Origin: Chaetoceros tenuissimus
Lineage: Eukaryota > Bacillariophyta > Thalassiosirophyceae > Chaetocerotales > Chaetocerotaceae
Direction: 5' to 3'
NCBI GenBank assembly: GCA_021927905.1
Contig: BLLK01000047.1
Location: forward strand, 3,906,001-3,970,000
DNA: 64,000 nt
Positions 40,798-52,285 of the stretch are shown one piece after another. Both the position numbers and the translations under genes were made by a program. Position 1 is the stretch's first letter; each line of letters begins with the position of its first letter. The notes under the pieces were generated by a model. The model was not told where the DNA came from. It did not search any database and worked only from the letters and a program-made list of their open reading frames with translations.

Positions 40798-41036
40798 CTG
40801 TAAATTTGCCCGGACTGCTTTACTCGTGACTCAAAATAGTGACATAGTTTCCTCAAGGTCTATTTATCTAAGGTACCTTGGTTTCCTACATAGGTCTATT
40901 TTCGCGAGACGGTCCCATCAAATAGCTTGCCCGGACCGAGACGCAAGAAATAAAAATGTTCTTTTGCTCACATTCCTGTGTGAACTGCGATGTAATACGC
41001 TCTCTCTCTCTCTTAATATCAATCACAAATAAAAAC

Positions 41037-42395
41037 ATGAGAGAACTGCTTTTTCCACAAAAGCTCCACAAAATCCTTGATGACAACCTATTTGAAGAGA
41101 TTATTTCATGGCAGCCTCATGGTAGATCATTCAAAGTTCATCAACAAGGAGACTTTATGAAGAAAGTTTATCCTATTTACTTCAAAAAGACTGTGAAGTA
41201 TCCGTCCTTTCAGCGGCAGCTTAGCTACTATGGCTTCAGACGCCAAGAATTACCAGGACCTGATAAGGGTGGTTACTACCATCCGCACTTCTTGAGAGGT
41301 TGCTTTAGTTTATGTACTCAGCAAGTCTATCGCCATGTCGAAAGAGAGCAAGAAGCCGATGAAAATACACTCCCTTGTTACGACAAGTGTTCAACAAGGG
41401 AGATAGCAGGAGGACTAAAGGTTAAAAGTCCTCTGTACAATAAACAAGGATCGAAAGTTCCTGAGCCAATGTTCTACGAAATGACACCTTTGCCATCCCT
41501 TCCTAATCAGGTAAAAAGCAAAGCAGATAAGGAAGAATTCAATGATACGAGAAGATCTCATCATGATCGTGATTTGCATCCTTTCATGACAATGATGGGT
41601 CCTGATCCCCCTTCCAGTGACTCGTTTCGTTCCGATACAAATGAATACTACCCAAGATATGGACACAAGGAATGGTATTATCCTAGTAATACTGTAGAAC
41701 CCCGTCCTCTCGATGGATGGAAGTATGAGGTCGCTGACTGTTATTATGCTCCTCCATCTCTTTCTTACGATCATGACGGTCGCCAAAACTACCATGATAC
41801 CTCTGTTGATCTATATCATTATCCATACGAACACCAAATCATGATAGAGAATGAAACAACTTCCTCAAGAAATAAAGAGATACGTGACGCTTCACTAGCA
41901 AATGGATATTACTCCAATTATTCTCATGATACTCATTTCGATGATTATGATTATACAAACAGTAATGCCGCAGCACCTGTTCATTCTGCAAAAAGTAGAA
42001 ATATATCAATAGGATATTGTTCGTTCATTCCTGTTCGAGGAGATAAGAAGAGAGAGGACCAAAGCAGTAGTAAAAAGTCAAATGTTGTGTATGTCGAGCC
42101 ACCAAGTCTTCTTCCGGCATCATCAAATTTTGATAATGAGAGCGATCCCATCGAGCCTTCTTCAAGAAGTTTGAATGAAGCTTACTCGACAATGATGGTA
42201 TCAGGAGCAGCAAGAATGTCAGATCCACCCCTCTTGGCTAAAGATGAGTGTAATAGAAAATCAGGAGAAGAAGATGCAGACATCTTTGGTCAGGAAAAAG
42301 CTCTTCTCGATGAGGCTAGACGTTGTATCAATATGGACTCATCTGATGATAGGGATGACCCATTTATGTCATCTTCATTCTCTTTTTCATGGTAA
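41037..42395 (+). CDS. Heat-shock-factor-type transcription factor
   Basis: Single exon, 452 residues from ATG 41037 (a CT-dinucleotide run lies just upstream, 41000-41013). The HSF DNA-binding domain occupies residues ~4-95: F-P-Q-K-L-H-K-I-L, I-S-W-Q-P-H-G-R-S-F-K-V-H, then Y-P-S-F-Q-R-Q-L-S-Y-Y-G-F-R-R, equivalent to the recognition helix N-M-x-S-F-V-R-Q-L-N-x-Y-G-F. The Asn/Met before S-F are replaced. I see no clear hydrophobic heptad (HR-A/B) after the domain, so trimer formation is doubtful. The rest is rich in Tyr, His, Ser and Asp. HSF genes are greatly multiplied in diatoms; target genes are unknown. Confidence 0.88.
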   Translation: MRELLFPQKLHKILDDNLFEEIISWQPHGRSFKVHQQGDFMKKVYPIYFKKTVKYPSFQRQLSYYGFRRQELPGPDKGGYYHPHFLRGCFSLCTQQVYRHVEREQEADENTLPCYDKCSTREIAGGLKVKSPLYNKQGSKVPEPMFYEMTPLPSLPNQVKSKADKEEFNDTRRSHHDRDLHPFMTMMGPDPPSSDSFRSDTNEYYPRYGHKEWYYPSNTVEPRPLDGWKYEVADCYYAPPSLSYDHDGRQNYHDTSVDLYHYPYEHQIMIENETTSSRNKEIRDASLANGYYSNYSHDTHFDDYDYTNSNAAAPVHSAKSRNISIGYCSFIPVRGDKKREDQSSSKKSNVVYVEPPSLLPASSNFDNESDPIEPSSRSLNEAYSTMMVSGAARMSDPPLLAKDECNRKSGEEDADIFGQEKALLDEARRCINMDSSDDRDDPFMSSSFSFSW

Positions 42396-43901: not shown

Positions 43902-46900
43902 TTATTTAAAATTGATAAGAAAATTCCTTTGGCTCTTGCTGGCGCTTCGAAGCAAATGTCTACGGTGCCCTGAAGCACGCAGATTCGGTTGTACTGTATC
44001 TTGCTCTTCGATCTTTCCCCAAACATCAAGTTGCCATCTCTTCTTGAGACTCATACTTGATAGCAAATGTTCTACGGAGATTTTGGACATGTGACCGTGA
44101 GAACGAAGCAACTTGATGACAGTCTTGCGGCAAGCATTGGCCATAGAAGCATTACCACAAATCATGACATGAGTATTTTTGCATAACAACAATTCAACTA
44201 CTCTTTCTGCATTGTCTTCCAACAAGTCTTGCACATATGTCTTGGGCTCATCACTTTCACGACTGTAGGCAATATGTGAAGTAATGACTCCCTCCTTGTC
44301 CCACCTCTCAATCTTATCCTTGTACAAGAACTCACCCTTTGTTCTACAACCAAAGAAGAAATGCCACTTTGCATACTGTGAATATGACGCAAATTCAGCT
44401 GCTCTTTCTTCCATGAATGCCATGAATGGAGCTATTCCTGTTCCTCCTCCAATCAGAACTACTGGAAACGTTGGATCACTTGGGCATCGGAAAGAACTCT
44501 TCACTACTCTTGCATCAAAGGCAGTACCAGGTGAAAAACTGCGGAGGTAGCTAGAGCAAGTTCCTTTCTCGATTTTGCCATCACTTGTTTCTCGTTGGTA
44601 TAGTCCTACAGTGATTGATAGTGCCTGAGGAGACAGTAGATCTGAGCTAGATATGGAATAAAATCTATCCTTCATTGTTGGCATGAGGACTAATACATCT
44701 GCGATACCAATGACTGGCTTTTGACGCTTTGACTTGATTGTATGGATAGGTTTGCACAAGAGATCCTTGTATACCTCGAAAAAGTCAACAATGGTAGGAT
44801 ATTTATCCTTGAATGTTTGCACTGTCTCATCGCTACCCTTTGCTGTCGCATTTTTACCTATCAAAAGATCAGAGTCTTCTTCGAATCTATGCAAGAGAGG
44901 ATCTATGGAAGGATCAACAAAACTTGCTTGCATTGCTTCGTCAAGCTTAGCATCTACCATTGTCAGCAAGTCAATAATATATGTCGAAGTATTGAAAGAA
45001 AAATCTAACGAACGTTGAAGAGCCAGACGGAGAGTATTATTGGTCAATGCCTTTGACTGAATTTCACTGGTCTCGCCATTCTCTTTTGAAAGAACAGAAA
45101 ACCTCTGTTCAATCAACCAAAACAGACTCGGAGAGTTGCAGTCATACTTCTTTGCCTTTTCAGAGTATGTGGCTGCTGCACTTTTCGAGTCGAACTTAGA
45201 TTTGAGTGGATTACATTTCTCAACTACCTCAGTTAGTTCAAGCTCAAAGCATTTACAAAATCGAATTACTTTGGCCATCGAGTTTAATGGCGACACTGCA
45301 AGATGGTCCCCACTTGTGTAATTCAGTCTCCCATTACATTCCATCTCAATGTGCCTTACTGATGGAACGAGTTTTGTAACATCATTTTCTTGTTCGGAGG
45401 TACGACACAACTCAATATTCTTCGTGCACTTCATGTTATCTAGAGAAAATTTGACAGAATTGGAACCATCTGGAAGCCATGCAATTGAGTATTTCAAGGG
45501 AGAAGTAGATACTCCTTCTTCTTGATTCATAGTCTTGATTTCATTCACAAGTCTCTCAGGTAAGACTTGATTAGAAACATTGGTTGACCATTCAAGAATT
45601 GCTTCTTGATTGCCTCTAGCGCTATCAACCTTTACTATCTCACACATTGATTGAGCACCTACATCCATCATTTTATACCTAAGGTCTTGTCCAGCTTTAC
45701 AGAAGTCAGGATAGAGACTCGATCCTAGAGCTAAGACCGCAAACTGCAGTCCTGTAAAGTCAAAATCGTGAACCTTCTCAAAGAACTCAACTGCATTGGA
45801 TGGAGGAGAGCCTTGTCCAAACGTGGAACAGAGTATGAGCATATACTCAAAGGAAGCACGGGTGTCGCGATCCATGGAGAGTAGTTCGTTCAGTGTGCAG
45901 ACAGTGGGAGAACAAAGCTTCAATCGCTTTGACAAGGATGAAGCACATTGTTCAGCAGTGCCAGTCTCTGAACCATATGCAATGAGTACTTTCGGTACTT
46001 CAACCCTCCTGTTCCGAGTGATGATGAGCTGACTTTGACTTTGTTCTTTCATTAGAGTATTTCTTTTCTTTTGGAAACCCTCTAAGCTAATAAGTTCAGA
46101 TGGGTCACAGCAATAATCATACTGAGGGCACTTCTTGAAGTCTCTCATCTCGAGATGCCAGGTAGGATTCGTACTTCCCAGCAGACCGCCTATCCAGCTC
46201 CACTGAGCCGGACATTCTCGGCCACTTTCTCTTTCTCTCTTGCAATGTGCGAGGAAAGACTCCCCAACACCGACAGGATCTACTACAGTGAATTTTTCCT
46301 TCTCGAAAGAATGTAGAACAGCAGTCTCCAACTCTGCAGAAACCTTTACCTTCACAAGTTTGTCTTCAAGACTAATCCCAAAGATAGGTGCAAGTAGCTT
46401 TGTCACATCATAACGCTCAATAAGATTTCTAACTACCTCGGTTGATAAAAACCATCCATTGAACGGCGAACAAGGATATTTGATACCACCCAAGTTCATC
46501 ATGAAGTTTGTAATAGCAGGGACTGCAGCCCATTTGAGTCCGAGATCTTTCAGTGACGGAAAGTCTGGATGCTCAATCTTAATCTCGTGCACGACTTCCT
46601 TCGGTAATTCATACACAAATGGATGCTCATTGTTCGGAAACTTGAGAACAAGTGGTAACACATCAAATGCGCTTTTCTTCTTTGGAGGCATCCACAACTC
46701 TCTTTCAATTAGCAGTTCTGTGATGTTCACATTAGCTGGATCGCCAAGAATTTGGCCAGTACTTTCATTGATATAGCCAGCATACCGAACAAACTGGGAG
46801 CTCCAAAAACGCATACCAAAGATTTCACTGGACGATTGGGGTCTGAATACAGTCATCACAGATTGTATGTTCGTACCACCAGTAGCAATCTTGAGATGCT

Positions 46901-49034
46901 CTACGCATTCATCAAAGACCTTGCGAGGATTATCACTGACGTGTCTACAATCTCGCACTTGCAAAGTATTCCATGAGATACGACCGACACATTTACTACT
47001 GTTTCTCCAAGCCAATCTTGCACCGATCTCAAGCTCTTCAGGTGTATGAGTATACGTCCCTGTTGCAGAGATCTCAGTTCTCACAGCGAAAAGGCGTTTT
47101 CTTTTAGATTCATGAGTCCAATTCAGCTCAGTTGCAATTTCATCTATGAAACGTTCAGCATCTTTTTGGAGTTTATACTTTGCTTTGATTGGGTACAGTA
47201 TGCCAACCTTGAGGCATTCTTTCCATAGGTACGAAAAGGATTCAGTCAAAATGTCATTTGAATCCAAAAGAGCAATAGATGCAACACTGACAACCTCCTT
47301 TCCTAGCAGCAATAATGCTTCGGCTGTCAGATCCAGATCATTCCATTTCGTACTGAATCTATTGAAAGTCTTTCGGATCTCAGATGATGGATTACTAATG
47401 TCTATAGGAGATTTGGTCATCAATAAAATCCTGCAAAGTAAATGATTAGCGGTAGCACATTAGATATGATGATGAAACATGTTTGCACGTTTTACTTACA
47501 CTTCAAAGATATAGTATGACACTTCTTCAATATCAACATCGGAGAAATGGTCTTCAATATCTTGAATCTTTGCAAAGAGCTTACTGAATGCGGAAGTAAC
47601 AACAACCCTGATCTTATCTTCGATACCATCGTCTTCTATGGAAATTAAATCACGAAGATCTTTAAAGTCTTGCTTTTCAATATGCATGGATGTACGTCCA
47701 AAGGATTCAATCAATGGCAAAACAACCATTCCAGATATGAATTTTGCATGAGCTCCCATTGCATTTATATCCTCTTTTTCGTGATCAAGTGAGTATGGAT
47801 TCTGATTCTTCATCGCCCAAAGGAAGGCATCACAAAGTAGAAGCCAATGCTCTGGCTTCGCTCCATAGCTGGAAAGAGTCTCGCAGAAGCCTTGGATGGT
47901 TGTGCATTCATTTTCATGAATAAATAGGTCCGAAACTTCATTATCTTCGTCTTTGGAACCATTTATCTCTCGGTATGCTTCACGTTGCACATACTGAGCA
48001 TGAGGACAAAGACTCCTTACTGCCATATCAAGCATAGAAACTAGAATGAGACCAATGTCTGACACTCTTTGTCCAAAGTGTAGCGCTAACGAATCCAAGT
48101 TATTTTCTACCAGCCTTAAAGCTTCTTTTTCCAGCTTTCTTGTGCTTGAGACACCATTATTTTCTGTCTCAAAAATGTTTTGAACCCAGAATTGCTGCTC
48201 AAAGTCATTTTTTCTCTCTTCATTTTTAGCAGAAATATCTGTAGCGGCAACGAGGATTCTCCATCGTCCAACGAGAGCCTCTGCAAATTTCGATCGAAAG
48301 GCTAATACCTTGTTCCATGATTCCATGAGAAGTACAACATCTTTCTTACCTTCAAGAAGTACTTGAGTTACGGGCTGTCTCATGTTCAAGTTGTACTCTT
48401 CAAAGTCAACATTCCAAGTTGATTTGAGTGTAACCTTTGCATCATGAAGCAAAAGGAGATGCGGGGACTCGGTAGACGCAATAGAGGAATCATCCAATGA
48501 ATGATCCGATGCTTGGATAAAAGGGATAGAGTGAACCGAATTATCAATACTTGATCTACGTGACGAGTCCATACTTGCATATCTCTTCTTCTTGATGTAC
48601 TTTTGAAAAGTTTTTGAATATTCATTGATATTTCTGGTGGAATGGGAATGCATAGAGTCATCTATATTTTTCTTTTTCATTTCAAGTTGTACCCTTTTGT
48701 CATAAGGATCATCGTTTTTTGTATTTGTAGTTTTTCTAGAGTTGATGTTGTTTGGAACGCTGGTGGAAGAATGTGACGAAGAGGACAATGATTGACGGGC
48801 ATCTAGGCGATTCTTATTACGAGCAGTTTTTTTACCACCAGAGGAAATAGATGTGAGACGTACATTTGCTTTGAATCTATCAAGAAAAGACGCAGAGGAA
48901 GACACAGAGCATGCATCAGAATCATCTGGTACATCAATGCCGATCTCCCCTCTTTTACTGTCGGTCATGAATCCAGCCCTTTTATTGCTGCTATTGTCTA
49001 CTCTTGTTCTCAGTACAGATACATTCGGGGCCAT
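43902..49034 (-). CDS. NOS: Globin-nitric oxide synthase fusion
   Basis: Exons 49034-47500 and 47430-43902, joined by a 69-nt intron (GTAAGT...TTGCAG, phase 2) to a 1687-residue protein. Residues 1-190 are Ser/Lys-rich. Residues ~230-447 look like a globin: L-L-M-E-S-W helix A start, and S-Y-G-A-K-P-E-H-W...A-F-L-W for helices F-G. The usual proximal His position (three before Tyr390) appears to be Leu. The NOS oxygenase follows: heme Cys659 in W-R-N-S-S-K-C-V-G-R, substrate Glu843 in F-N-G-W-F-L-S-T-E, and the pterin-side C-P-A-Q-W-S-W. After a ~40-residue basic linker comes an FMN flavodoxin domain (Y-G-S-E-T-G-T-A-E) without the autoinhibitory insert of nNOS/eNOS, then FAD (R-F-Y-S-I-S-S-S) and NADPH (G-G-G-T-G-I-A-P-F) parts. 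It should make NO and citrulline from arginine with its own reductase. No Cys-x4-Cys zinc site was seen. Confidence 0.92.
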
Positions 49035-50172: not shown

Positions 50173-52285
50173 TTAGAAAAGGCCAGCATCGTTTTCTTCT
50201 CCATCCAATCCATACAACTGAACAGCGGATGCAGACTTGCGGACACCAGTGGTTTTGCCCAAGTGAGTCTCCACAGTTTTGATTGCAGGCTGATGTTTGA
50301 AAGAAGAAGCTCTGACAGATGAGCCCTGTTTTGGTTTCTCCTCCTTCTTGGTTGAGGTGGTTGCACTTTGAACTGGTGCAGAAGGACGATCGAAGTAGCA
50401 GCGAGCGCATGCAGTTGGGTCTGAAGTAACAACTGGAAGCTCAGTATGCATATAGTCCACTGCAAGTTGTTTAAGAGCAGCGGCATCAGCCAAAATACGT
50501 GCACGCTCTTCAGCTTCTTCGACTGACTCTTGCTCAACAGCAGATGCACGGTCGAAGTAAGAACGAGCACATGCAATGGCATCATTAGATACAACTGGAA
50601 GCTCAGGATGCATATAGTCCACTGCAAGTTGTTTAAGTGCTGCAGCATCAGCGAGAGCCATTGCACGCTCTTCTGCATCCTCAACAGTCTCTTGCTCTGG
50701 AGCAGATGGACGAGTGAAATAATTACGTCCAAACGCAGTTGCATCAGTGGTAGTAACAGGCAACTCTGGATGCATATAATCAACTGCAAGTTTCTTCAAT
50801 GCAGCTGCATCAGCAAGAACTCTAGCACGTTCTTCAGCCTCTTCAAAGGATTCTTGTTCTGGAGCAGATGGACGATCAAAGAAGCATCTTGGTTCAGTTG
50901 ATCCAATGGTGTAAAATTCTCCACTCTCAAGAGATACTTTGTTGACGACTGGAAGTTCAGGATGCATGTAGTCAATAGCCAATTCTTTAAGCTGTTTCGC
51001 ATCAGCAAGGATACGTGCACGTTCCTCAGCCTCTTCAAGGGATTCTTGTTCTGGTGCCGAGGCACGGTTAAAGTAGTTCCGTCCAAATACAGTTGGATCA
51101 GAAGTAGTAACAGGCAATTCTGGATGCATGTAGTCCACTGCAAGCTTCTTAAGTGCAGCAGCATCAGCCAAAATACGAGCCCGTTCTTCTGCTTCCTCCG
51201 TAGATTCTTGTTCAGGAGCAGATGGACGATCAAAGTAGCAACGAGCACAAGCTGTAGAATCATTGGACACGACTGGAAGCTCAGGATGAAGATATTCAAT
51301 AGCAGCCTGCTTAAGTGCTGCAGCATCAGCTAGAGCCATTGCACGCTCTTCTGCTTCTTCCATAGATTCTTGTTCAGGAGCAGAGTATCTATCAAAGTAG
51401 CAGCGAGCACATGCTGTAGGATCATTGGACACGACTGGAAGCTCAGGATGCATGTAATCAACAGCAAGCTGCTTGAGCTGCTTCGCCTCTTCCAAAATTC
51501 TAGCCTGCTCTTCAGCCTCTTCAAGTGACTCTTGGTCAGGTGCAGATGCTCTTTCAAAGAAGCAACGAGTAGCAGCAGCTGCAACAAGAGCAAGTTGTGC
51601 AGCTGGGATTCCAACCTCAGGATGAGCAAAGTCAGTTGCAAGCTTCTTCAACGCAGCTGCATCTTCAAGGATATGTGCACGCTCCTCAGCCTCTTCAAAA
51701 GACTCTTGCTCTGGAGCAGATGCACGGTCGAAGTAGCAACGAGCACATGCAGTTGAATCATTGGTTACAACTGGAAGCTCAGGATGCAAGTAATCAATAG
51801 CAACTTGCTTAAGGGCTGCAGCGTCAGCAAGAATCTGTGCACGCTCTTCTGCTTCCTCAACAGTCTCTTGCTCTGGAGCAGATGGACGATCAAAGTAACA
51901 GCGAGCACATGCAGTTGGCTCAGACTCAACTGGAAGCTCAGGATGTGCGAACATGACTGCGAGCTTTTTAAGCTGCTTCGCATCTTCCAAAATTCTTAGA
52001 CGTTCCAAGAATTCTATAAAAAACACATGTGTTGGTGACATGAATCAATCAAAGGCCAAGAATATAAAGAGAAAAGACATGATGCTTACCTTCGTCATCT
52101 TCTTCCTCCTCTTCATCATCAGTTTCGGAGTCGGTATCAGAGTCGCTGGAGTAATACTCCTCCTCCTCTTCTTGTTCTGACACACGTTTGGAGTCAACAA
52201 CATTTTCCACGTTCAGTCCTCTTTCATTTTCCACCATCTCATCTGGCTGTTGTACTTTTGCTGAAGAGGACGCTTGGTTTCCCAT
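50173..52285 (-). CDS. Protein of ten ~54-residue repeats, probably myristoylated
   Basis: Exons 52285-52090 and 52013-50173 (76-nt intron, GTAAGC...TTATAG, phase 1), 678 residues. M-G-N-Q-A-S-S predicts N-myristoylation. Residues ~38-66 are a Glu/Asp/Ser run. Then come ten tandem repeats: a helix E-E-R-A-R-I-L-A-D-A-A-A-L-K-x-L-A, the fixed phrase D-Y-M-H-P-E-L-P-V, a variable T-A-C-A-R-C-Y-F or T-A-F-G-R-N-Y-F, and a linker R-x-S-A-P-E-Q-E-S-x-E-E-A. Repeats 3 and 7 carry short insertions. The tail is Lys/Ser-rich and ends D-G-E-E-N-D-A-G-L-F. I do not recognise the repeat from any described family. The uniform codon use between repeats hints at high expression or recent homogenisation. Role unknown. 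Confidence 0.85.

What the first reader, a model, noticed from the sequence alone, without database searches (positions are those of the whole stretch)
43902..49034. Complete globin-NOS fusion in a diatom, joined by one short intron
Two large open frames, one globin-like and one a full NOS with its own reductase, are linked by a 69-nt intron that keeps the frame (GT|G valine codon). Globin-NOS fusions are known in cyanobacteria and some algae, but few are characterised and the reductase-bearing type is rare in photosynthetic eukaryotes. One protein could make NO and handle it in the attached domain.
Basis: partly seen in the sequence, partly recalled or inferred. Interest (0 to 1): 0.75.

Follow-up and report, generated by a model that had tools for sequence, protein, structure and literature searches.

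The report
Diatom NO synthase with heme-less globins
A diatom carries four copies of an enzyme that should make nitric oxide and is fused to globin-type domains, but these domains have lost the histidines that hold heme, so they probably act as scaffold or regulator rather than destroying the nitric oxide.

Summary
On the minus strand two exons (49034..47500, 47430..43902), joined by a 69-nt phase-2 intron, encode a 1687-residue NO synthase with its own diflavin reductase. The genome fits Chaetoceros tenuissimus NIES-3715 and holds three paralogues with the same split (introns 70, 89, 91 nt).

The interpretation needs correcting. Globin-NOS fusions in diatoms have been in print since 2015. The counterpart of the syNOS heme NO-dioxygenase globin lies at ~458-597, across the intron. 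There the proximal histidine (syNOS His422) is Trp541 and the E-helix histidine (His391) is Tyr508, in all four copies. The syNOS C2 domain is not detectable. The domain is still under purifying selection.

Most likely this is an NO source whose globins are structural or regulatory, not an enzyme that makes and then removes NO. My searches found no report of this loss. The proximal histidine is also missing in 6 of 28 bacterial relatives, three of them with EF-hands inserted in the globin.

The parts
47500..49034 (-). Exon 1 (aa 1-512, ending in GT of the split Val512 codon)
47431..47499 (-). Phase-2 intron, 69 nt, GTAAGT...TTTGCAG, falls in the E-helix region of the second globin
   Evidence: same position in three paralogues with 70, 89, 91 nt introns
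43902..47430 (-). Exon 2 (last base of codon 512, aa 513-1687 and TAA stop)
48384..49034 (-). N-terminal extension aa 1-217, S/T/N/Q 35%, probably disordered; stands where syNOS has its C2 domain; short conserved basic stretch (YSKTFQKYIKKK in this copy)
   Evidence: no match to bacterial C2 region, probability 0.1%; dN/dS 0.39-0.57
47664..48371 (-). Pseudoglobin-like domain aa 222-457, with an insertion of about 50 aa against bacterial relatives
   Evidence: profile-profile 97.2%, E 3.7e-11
47175..47663 (-). Globin domain without heme histidines, aa 458-597 (interrupted by the intron); counterpart of the syNOS NO-dioxygenase globin
47544..47546 (-). Phe497, the CD1 phenylalanine (syNOS Phe380), kept
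47511..47513 (-). Tyr508, at the place of the conserved E-helix His391 of syNOS
47343..47345 (-). Trp541, at the place of the proximal heme ligand His422 (F8) of syNOS
46104..47177 (-). NOS oxygenase domain (Pfam match aa 597-954) with Cys659, Ile818, Glu843, Trp922/Trp924
   Evidence: roles of these residues recalled, except the Ile, which PMC6104048 names
45588..45983 (-). Flavodoxin (FMN) domain, Pfam match aa 995-1126
44124..44699 (-). FAD/NADPH (FNR) part, best Pfam stretches aa 1423-1614
43905..44027 (-). C-terminal tail from DVWG onward, with SKSQRNFL[IV]NF at or one residue before the end in all four copies

Best explanation
The gene encodes a eukaryotic relative of the cyanobacterial-type globin-NOS (syNOS). 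Inferred function: NADPH electrons pass FAD to FMN to the oxygenase heme, and arginine becomes citrulline and NO. Shown by sequence: in front of the oxygenase sit two globin-type modules. The first matches the heme-free pseudoglobin that forms part of the syNOS dimer interface. The second matches the syNOS NO-dioxygenase globin but has lost its proximal histidine and its conserved E-helix histidine in all four genomic copies, while the domain stays under purifying selection. Inferred: the second globin no longer binds heme in the usual way and does not turn NO into nitrate. Both globins serve as a scaffold for the oxygenase dimer and as a rest for the reductase. The enzyme therefore releases NO as a signal, and NO removal falls to separate globins such as the free-standing histidine-bearing globin in the same genome. 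Loss of the C2 domain fits this, because in syNOS the C2 domain under Ca docks on the globin heme propionates. Control has probably moved to the long basic, serine-rich N-terminal tail or to the longer oxygenase-flavodoxin linker.
For: Best PDB hit is syNOS, E 5.2e-181, aligned from diatom residue 315. Residue table: CD1 Phe in 28 of 28 bacterial rows, syNOS and 4 of 4 diatom copies; His at both syNOS 391 and 422 in 22 of 28 bacterial rows plus syNOS; Tyr and Trp in 4 of 4 diatom copies. Hardly dependent on the alignment: between CD1 Phe and the oxygenase start the window copy and L007 have 0 His, L006 and L005 have 1 each, far from both places. Pfam Globin matches the second domain of L021 (4.1e-8) and L008 (6.9e-5) but nothing in the diatom protein at E<=1. 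Foldseek on the model of aa 205-600: all 7 PDB matches with E<=0.001 are syNOS chains. Foldseek on the model of aa 455-600: the 50 listed of 704 matches are all globins or flavohemoglobins, best E 0.03; Trp541 lies near the C-end of the third-last helix, the F-helix place. dN/dS of the globin 0.10-0.32 over six copy pairs. Separate globin with KKHKAYGV F-helix (L088) and a truncated globin (L089) in the genome. syNOS architecture, pseudoglobin and C2 docking: PMC12922734, abstract, sections 4, 10, 14 and passages.
Against: Taken alone, the diatom globin profile matches the bacterial globin profile only weakly (P 0.016, probability 2.9%, and only over aa 472-518, short of the F helix), so the exact register in the F helix rests on the long alignment and the models. 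Both models have low confidence (pLDDT 59.5 and 62.6), contain 23 intron codons read through, and used an alignment that includes true bacterial globins. No match to the smaller model reached E<=0.001. Heme could still bind through another ligand. In the syNOS study removing C2 abolished NOS activity, so a C2-less enzyme must differ. No expression or activity data. No other diatom sequence could be examined.
Confidence: 0.7

Rival explanations
1. A working globin-NOS as in syNOS: the second globin binds heme by a non-histidine ligand (Tyr507/508, Met, Cys or Lys) and still oxidises NO to nitrate.
For: Globin fold is compatible and CD1 Phe is kept; the domain is under purifying selection; the order of domains of syNOS is kept apart from C2.
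Against: Both conserved histidines are gone in 4 of 4 copies. A Trp at the proximal place does not ligate heme in any globin known to me (recalled). No Pfam globin score at E<=1.
Confidence: 0.15
2. Two separate products: exon 1 and exon 2 are made as different proteins, the NOS starting at Met516 (MTK is present in all four copies), so there is no fusion in the cell.
For: Met516 is conserved in all four copies; read on without splicing, exon 1 ends at a stop just inside the intron of the window copy.
Against: All four copies keep a phase-2 GT-AG intron at the same codon though its length differs (69, 70, 89, 91 nt). Exon 2 would start inside the globin and carry a stray half domain, while in syNOS the two halves form one domain.
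Confidence: 0.06
3. The second domain is in decay and has no role; the N-terminal part of the gene is on its way out.
For: Strong divergence from bacteria (10-16% identity in A4); loss of histidines and C2.
Against: dN/dS 0.10-0.32 for this domain, like the flavodoxin domain (0.08-0.21), in all six copy pairs; Trp541, Tyr508 and Phe497 invariant; frames intact in 4 of 4.
Confidence: 0.07

Closest known systems
syNOS, Synechococcus sp. PCC 7335 (PDB 9q05, 9q06)
   Same: Order pseudoglobin, globin, oxygenase, flavodoxin, FNR, C-terminal tail; Ile near the heme pocket (syNOS Ile in VPAI, given as 695 and 698 in PMC6104048; here Ile818); best PDB match over aa 315-1242 and 1423-1651
   Different: No detectable C2 domain; 217-aa serine-rich tail instead; about 50-aa insertion in the pseudoglobin; globin His422 is Trp541 and His391 is Tyr508; oxygenase-flavodoxin linker longer by about 12 aa
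Diatom globin-NOS (PmNOS of Pseudo-nitzschia multistriata, ScNOS of Skeletonema costatum; PMC4648414, PMC8728061)
   Same: Diatom NOS of the cyanobacterial type with N-terminal globin region
   Different: Four globin-type copies in this genome; the passages mention one or two NOS per diatom species
EF-hand globin-NOS of some cyanobacteria (loci L012, L028, L036)
   Same: Second globin has lost both conserved histidines
   Different: Loss goes with an EF-hand pair inserted between E and F helices; C2 region still seen in L028
Flavohemoglobin (Hmp) and single-domain heme globins
   Same: Globin fold (by model), CD1 Phe
   Different: No proximal histidine; no NO-dioxygenase activity expected

Membership tests
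Nitric oxide synthase (oxygenase plus diflavin reductase) | Oxygenase domain with heme Cys, arginine-binding Glu, pterin-pocket Trp (roles recalled) | tested here: met
   PF02898 2.2e-108; motifs with Cys659, Glu843 and Trp922 in 4 of 4 copies; Trp924 in 4 of 4 (QWSW)
Nitric oxide synthase (oxygenase plus diflavin reductase) | Flavodoxin, FAD and NADPH domains in the same chain | tested here: met
   PF00258, PF00667, PF00175
Nitric oxide synthase (oxygenase plus diflavin reductase) | Citrulline and NO formation | not testable with these tools
   needs protein
syNOS-type globin-NOS | N-terminal C2 domain | tested here: not met
   profile-profile probability 0.1% against the N-terminal region of 22 bacterial relatives; composition and alignment
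syNOS-type globin-NOS | Heme-free pseudoglobin before the globin | tested here: met
   97.2%, E 3.7e-11; all 7 Foldseek matches with E<=0.001 are syNOS
syNOS-type globin-NOS | Globin with CD1 Phe and proximal F8 His (named in PMC6104048) | tested here: not met
   Phe497 kept, F8 is Trp541 in 4 of 4 copies
syNOS-type globin-NOS | No calmodulin-binding segment between oxygenase and flavodoxin | tested here: inconclusive
   linker sequences read only; about 12 aa longer than in syNOS; no binding prediction run
Heme NO dioxygenase (flavohemoglobin-like) | Proximal histidine | tested here: not met
Heme NO dioxygenase (flavohemoglobin-like) | Globin fold | tested here: inconclusive
   50 of 50 listed PDB matches are globins or flavohemoglobins, but best E is 0.03 and the model is of low confidence and built with bacterial globins in the alignment

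The most novel reading that the evidence does not exclude
The globin slot of globin-NOS is a swappable control module whose heme has been thrown away more than once. In this diatom both globins are heme-free scaffolds, the Ca-switch C2 is gone, and four paralogues keep the arrangement, turning a make-and-remove NO enzyme into a dedicated NO signal source. In some cyanobacteria the same slot lost the same histidines and received an EF-hand pair, turning a heme site into a Ca sensor.
Probability: 0.5. Interest if true: 0.65.

Novelty: new variant of a known kind. Interest (0 to 1): 0.52.

Why it matters
Globin-NOS is discussed as an enzyme that makes NO and turns it into nitrate, and is proposed for crop nitrogen use (PMC7554344, passages). 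If diatom members have no heme in the globin, the presence of the domain cannot be read as NO-dioxygenase activity, and diatom NO signalling gains a plausible dedicated source. It also gives a natural test of what the globin scaffold does in NOS without its heme: a diatom with four such genes.

Tried and rejected
Pfam on exon 1 gave nothing, so the domain assignment rests on syNOS and its bacterial relatives. An IMG/VR scan for exon-1 relatives, by two peptide patterns, found none. I first called syNOS His391 'E7' (also in my notes and the printout); the passages of the two syNOS papers that I saw do not name it, and by spacing it could be E7 to E10, so I call it only the E-helix histidine. 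The quick tree (40 rows, 33 NOS and 7 oxygenase-only outgroup rows) puts the four diatom copies with Paraliomyxa at support 80 on a branch of 3.12 changes per column and warns of long-branch joins, so I do not use it to date the loss. Its fewest changes of the histidine state are 4 with and 3 without the outgroup; the direction of the deepest ones (L030, L031) is open. I considered decay and separate products (see rivals). One search was a pattern search that tested nothing useful.

Rows dropped: one search kept 80 of 110 relatives; I took 29 (L008-L036) for the N-terminal analysis. The other 51 (L037-L087) have matches over the oxygenase only and were not looked at further, except 7 used as outgroup. 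L024 was dropped from residue counts and from A3 and A4 because its frame lacks the globin region. The three EF-hand rows were left out of A4 and, with L020, L030, L031 and L024, out of the 'intact' profiles. In the dN/dS table one pair gave no value in the FNR part, and several dS values are near saturation.

Papers: PMC12922734 abstract, sections 4, 10, 14 and passages; PMC4648414, PMC7554344, PMC6104048, PMC8728061, PMC7400543, PMC8613185 passages only; PMC12305248 searched for three terms, none present; other papers seen in listings only. 'No report of the histidine loss' rests on searches of open-licence papers (one search listed 20 of 54); subscription papers were not searched.

Full report
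Observation. Spliced, they give 1687 aa. The genome (41.03 Mb, 68 contigs, window contig 4,456,483 bp) fits Chaetoceros tenuissimus NIES-3715 (41.0 Mb, 85 scaffolds, largest 4.46 Mb; PMC8613185, passages); this identity is inferred, and the contig numbers differ. Pfam NO_synthase finds four copies in it: this one, one 24 kb away on the same contig and strand, one elsewhere on that contig, one on C16. All four have both exons, and the intron (69, 70, 89, 91 nt) sits in phase 2 at the same codon. Since three of the four lengths would shift the frame if retained, splicing is well supported without RNA.

Domain map. The best solved relative is syNOS. Its published layout is C2 1-134, pseudoglobin 179-339 without heme, globin 340-473, oxygenase 474-852, flavodoxin 863-1003, FNR 1017-1468 (PMC12922734, section 10). 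I aligned the four diatom proteins with a syNOS fragment (from residue 213) and 29 bacterial relatives out of 80 loci fetched. Diatom 222-457 falls on the pseudoglobin: profile-profile probability 97.2%, E 3.7e-11. Diatom 453-593 falls on syNOS 340-473, the globin that oxidises NO. The 217 residues before the pseudoglobin show no match to the bacterial N-terminal (C2) region (0.1%) and evolve fast (dN/dS 0.39-0.57).

The missing histidines. In syNOS the hallmarks are Phe380 (CD1) and His422 (F8) (PMC6104048, passages). Of the 29 bacterial rows one (L024) lacks the region. In the other 28, CD1 Phe is present in 28; His at 422 and at the E-helix place 391 together in 22, and also in syNOS. The exceptions are L012, L028, L036, L030, L031 (both lost) and L020 (His at 391, Tyr at 422). 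All four diatom copies keep the CD1 Phe (497 in the window copy) and have Tyr at 508 and Trp at 541. The result hardly hangs on the alignment: from residue 498 to the oxygenase the window copy and L007 have no histidine at all, L006 and L005 one each, far from both places. A second alignment that includes the free-standing diatom globin L088, which has an F-helix histidine, puts Trp541 in the same column.

Structure. AlphaFold2 models (aa 205-600, pLDDT 59.5; aa 455-600, pLDDT 62.6) are of low confidence. Both contain the intron read through as 23 residues and used alignments that include bacterial globins, so they show compatibility with the globin fold and are not independent proof. Foldseek on the larger model gives seven PDB matches with E<=0.001, all syNOS; on the smaller, none at E<=0.001, but the 50 listed of 704 matches are all globins or flavohemoglobins, best E 0.03. 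In the smaller model the helix at aa 526-543 with Trp541 near its end is followed by helices 549-566 and 572-600, as F, G and H in globins. Result against: the globin profiles taken alone match weakly (P 0.016).

Selection. Between copies, dN/dS of the globin is 0.10-0.32, of the pseudoglobin 0.07-0.20, of the oxygenase 0.03-0.10, of the flavodoxin 0.08-0.21; several dS values are near saturation. The domain is kept, so it likely has a role.

Mechanism. Shown: the parts and the lost ligands. Inferred: the oxygenase and reductase make NO; the second globin holds no heme in the ordinary way and does not make nitrate; both globins support the oxygenase dimer, as the syNOS pseudoglobin does; NO removal can be done by other globins of the cell (L088, L089). 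[quoted passage not shown] How the diatom enzyme is switched is open: its tail holds a conserved basic stretch (YSKTFQKYIKKK in this copy, doubled in L006), and its oxygenase-flavodoxin linker is about 12 residues longer than in syNOS. Calmodulin binding was not tested.

Known or new. Globin-NOS in diatoms is known (PMC4648414; PMC7554344; PMC8728061). Loss of the heme ligand in it was not found in searches. I rate it a new variant of a known kind.

Noticed in passing
L012, L028, L036 (cyanobacterial NOS; L028:2397-3509): An EF-hand pair of about 60 aa is inserted in the globin between E and F helices, with both conserved histidines lost (Asn at the E-helix place; Val or Asn at F8). Pfam EF-hand_7 1.1e-12 to 3.2e-11. 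A heme site apparently turned into a Ca site. EF-hands in a Microcoleus and a Sorangium NOS, of another domain order, are in print (PMC7400543, passage).
   Followed up: partly
L020 (Paraliomyxa), L030 and L031 (Acidobacteriota): Non-cyanobacterial globin-NOS relatives also lack the proximal His (Tyr, Gln, Asp in the alignment column); Pfam shows no globin over cut-off in L020 and L030; L031 was not scanned.
   Followed up: partly
G000:C34:3976234-3977307 and window 46104-47177: Two of the four NOS genes lie about 24 kb apart on the same strand, 97% identical in the oxygenase and 50% in the N-terminal tail.
   Followed up: partly
L006:4131-5840 (minus): In the neighbouring paralogue the basic block (YSFQKYIKNKRYDQKR..LESSR) is present twice and is followed by short SGDSIPINKA-type repeats, in the tail that stands in place of C2.
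   Followed up: no
window 50173-52041 (minus): 622-aa frame made of repeats of roughly 54 aa (CYFDRPSAPEQES.EEAEERARILADAAALKQLAVDYMHPELPV...); no Pfam match over its cut-off.
   Followed up: no
window 40956-42395: Heat-shock-factor DNA-binding protein (PF00447, 8.1e-19), beyond the 3' end of the NOS gene.
   Followed up: no
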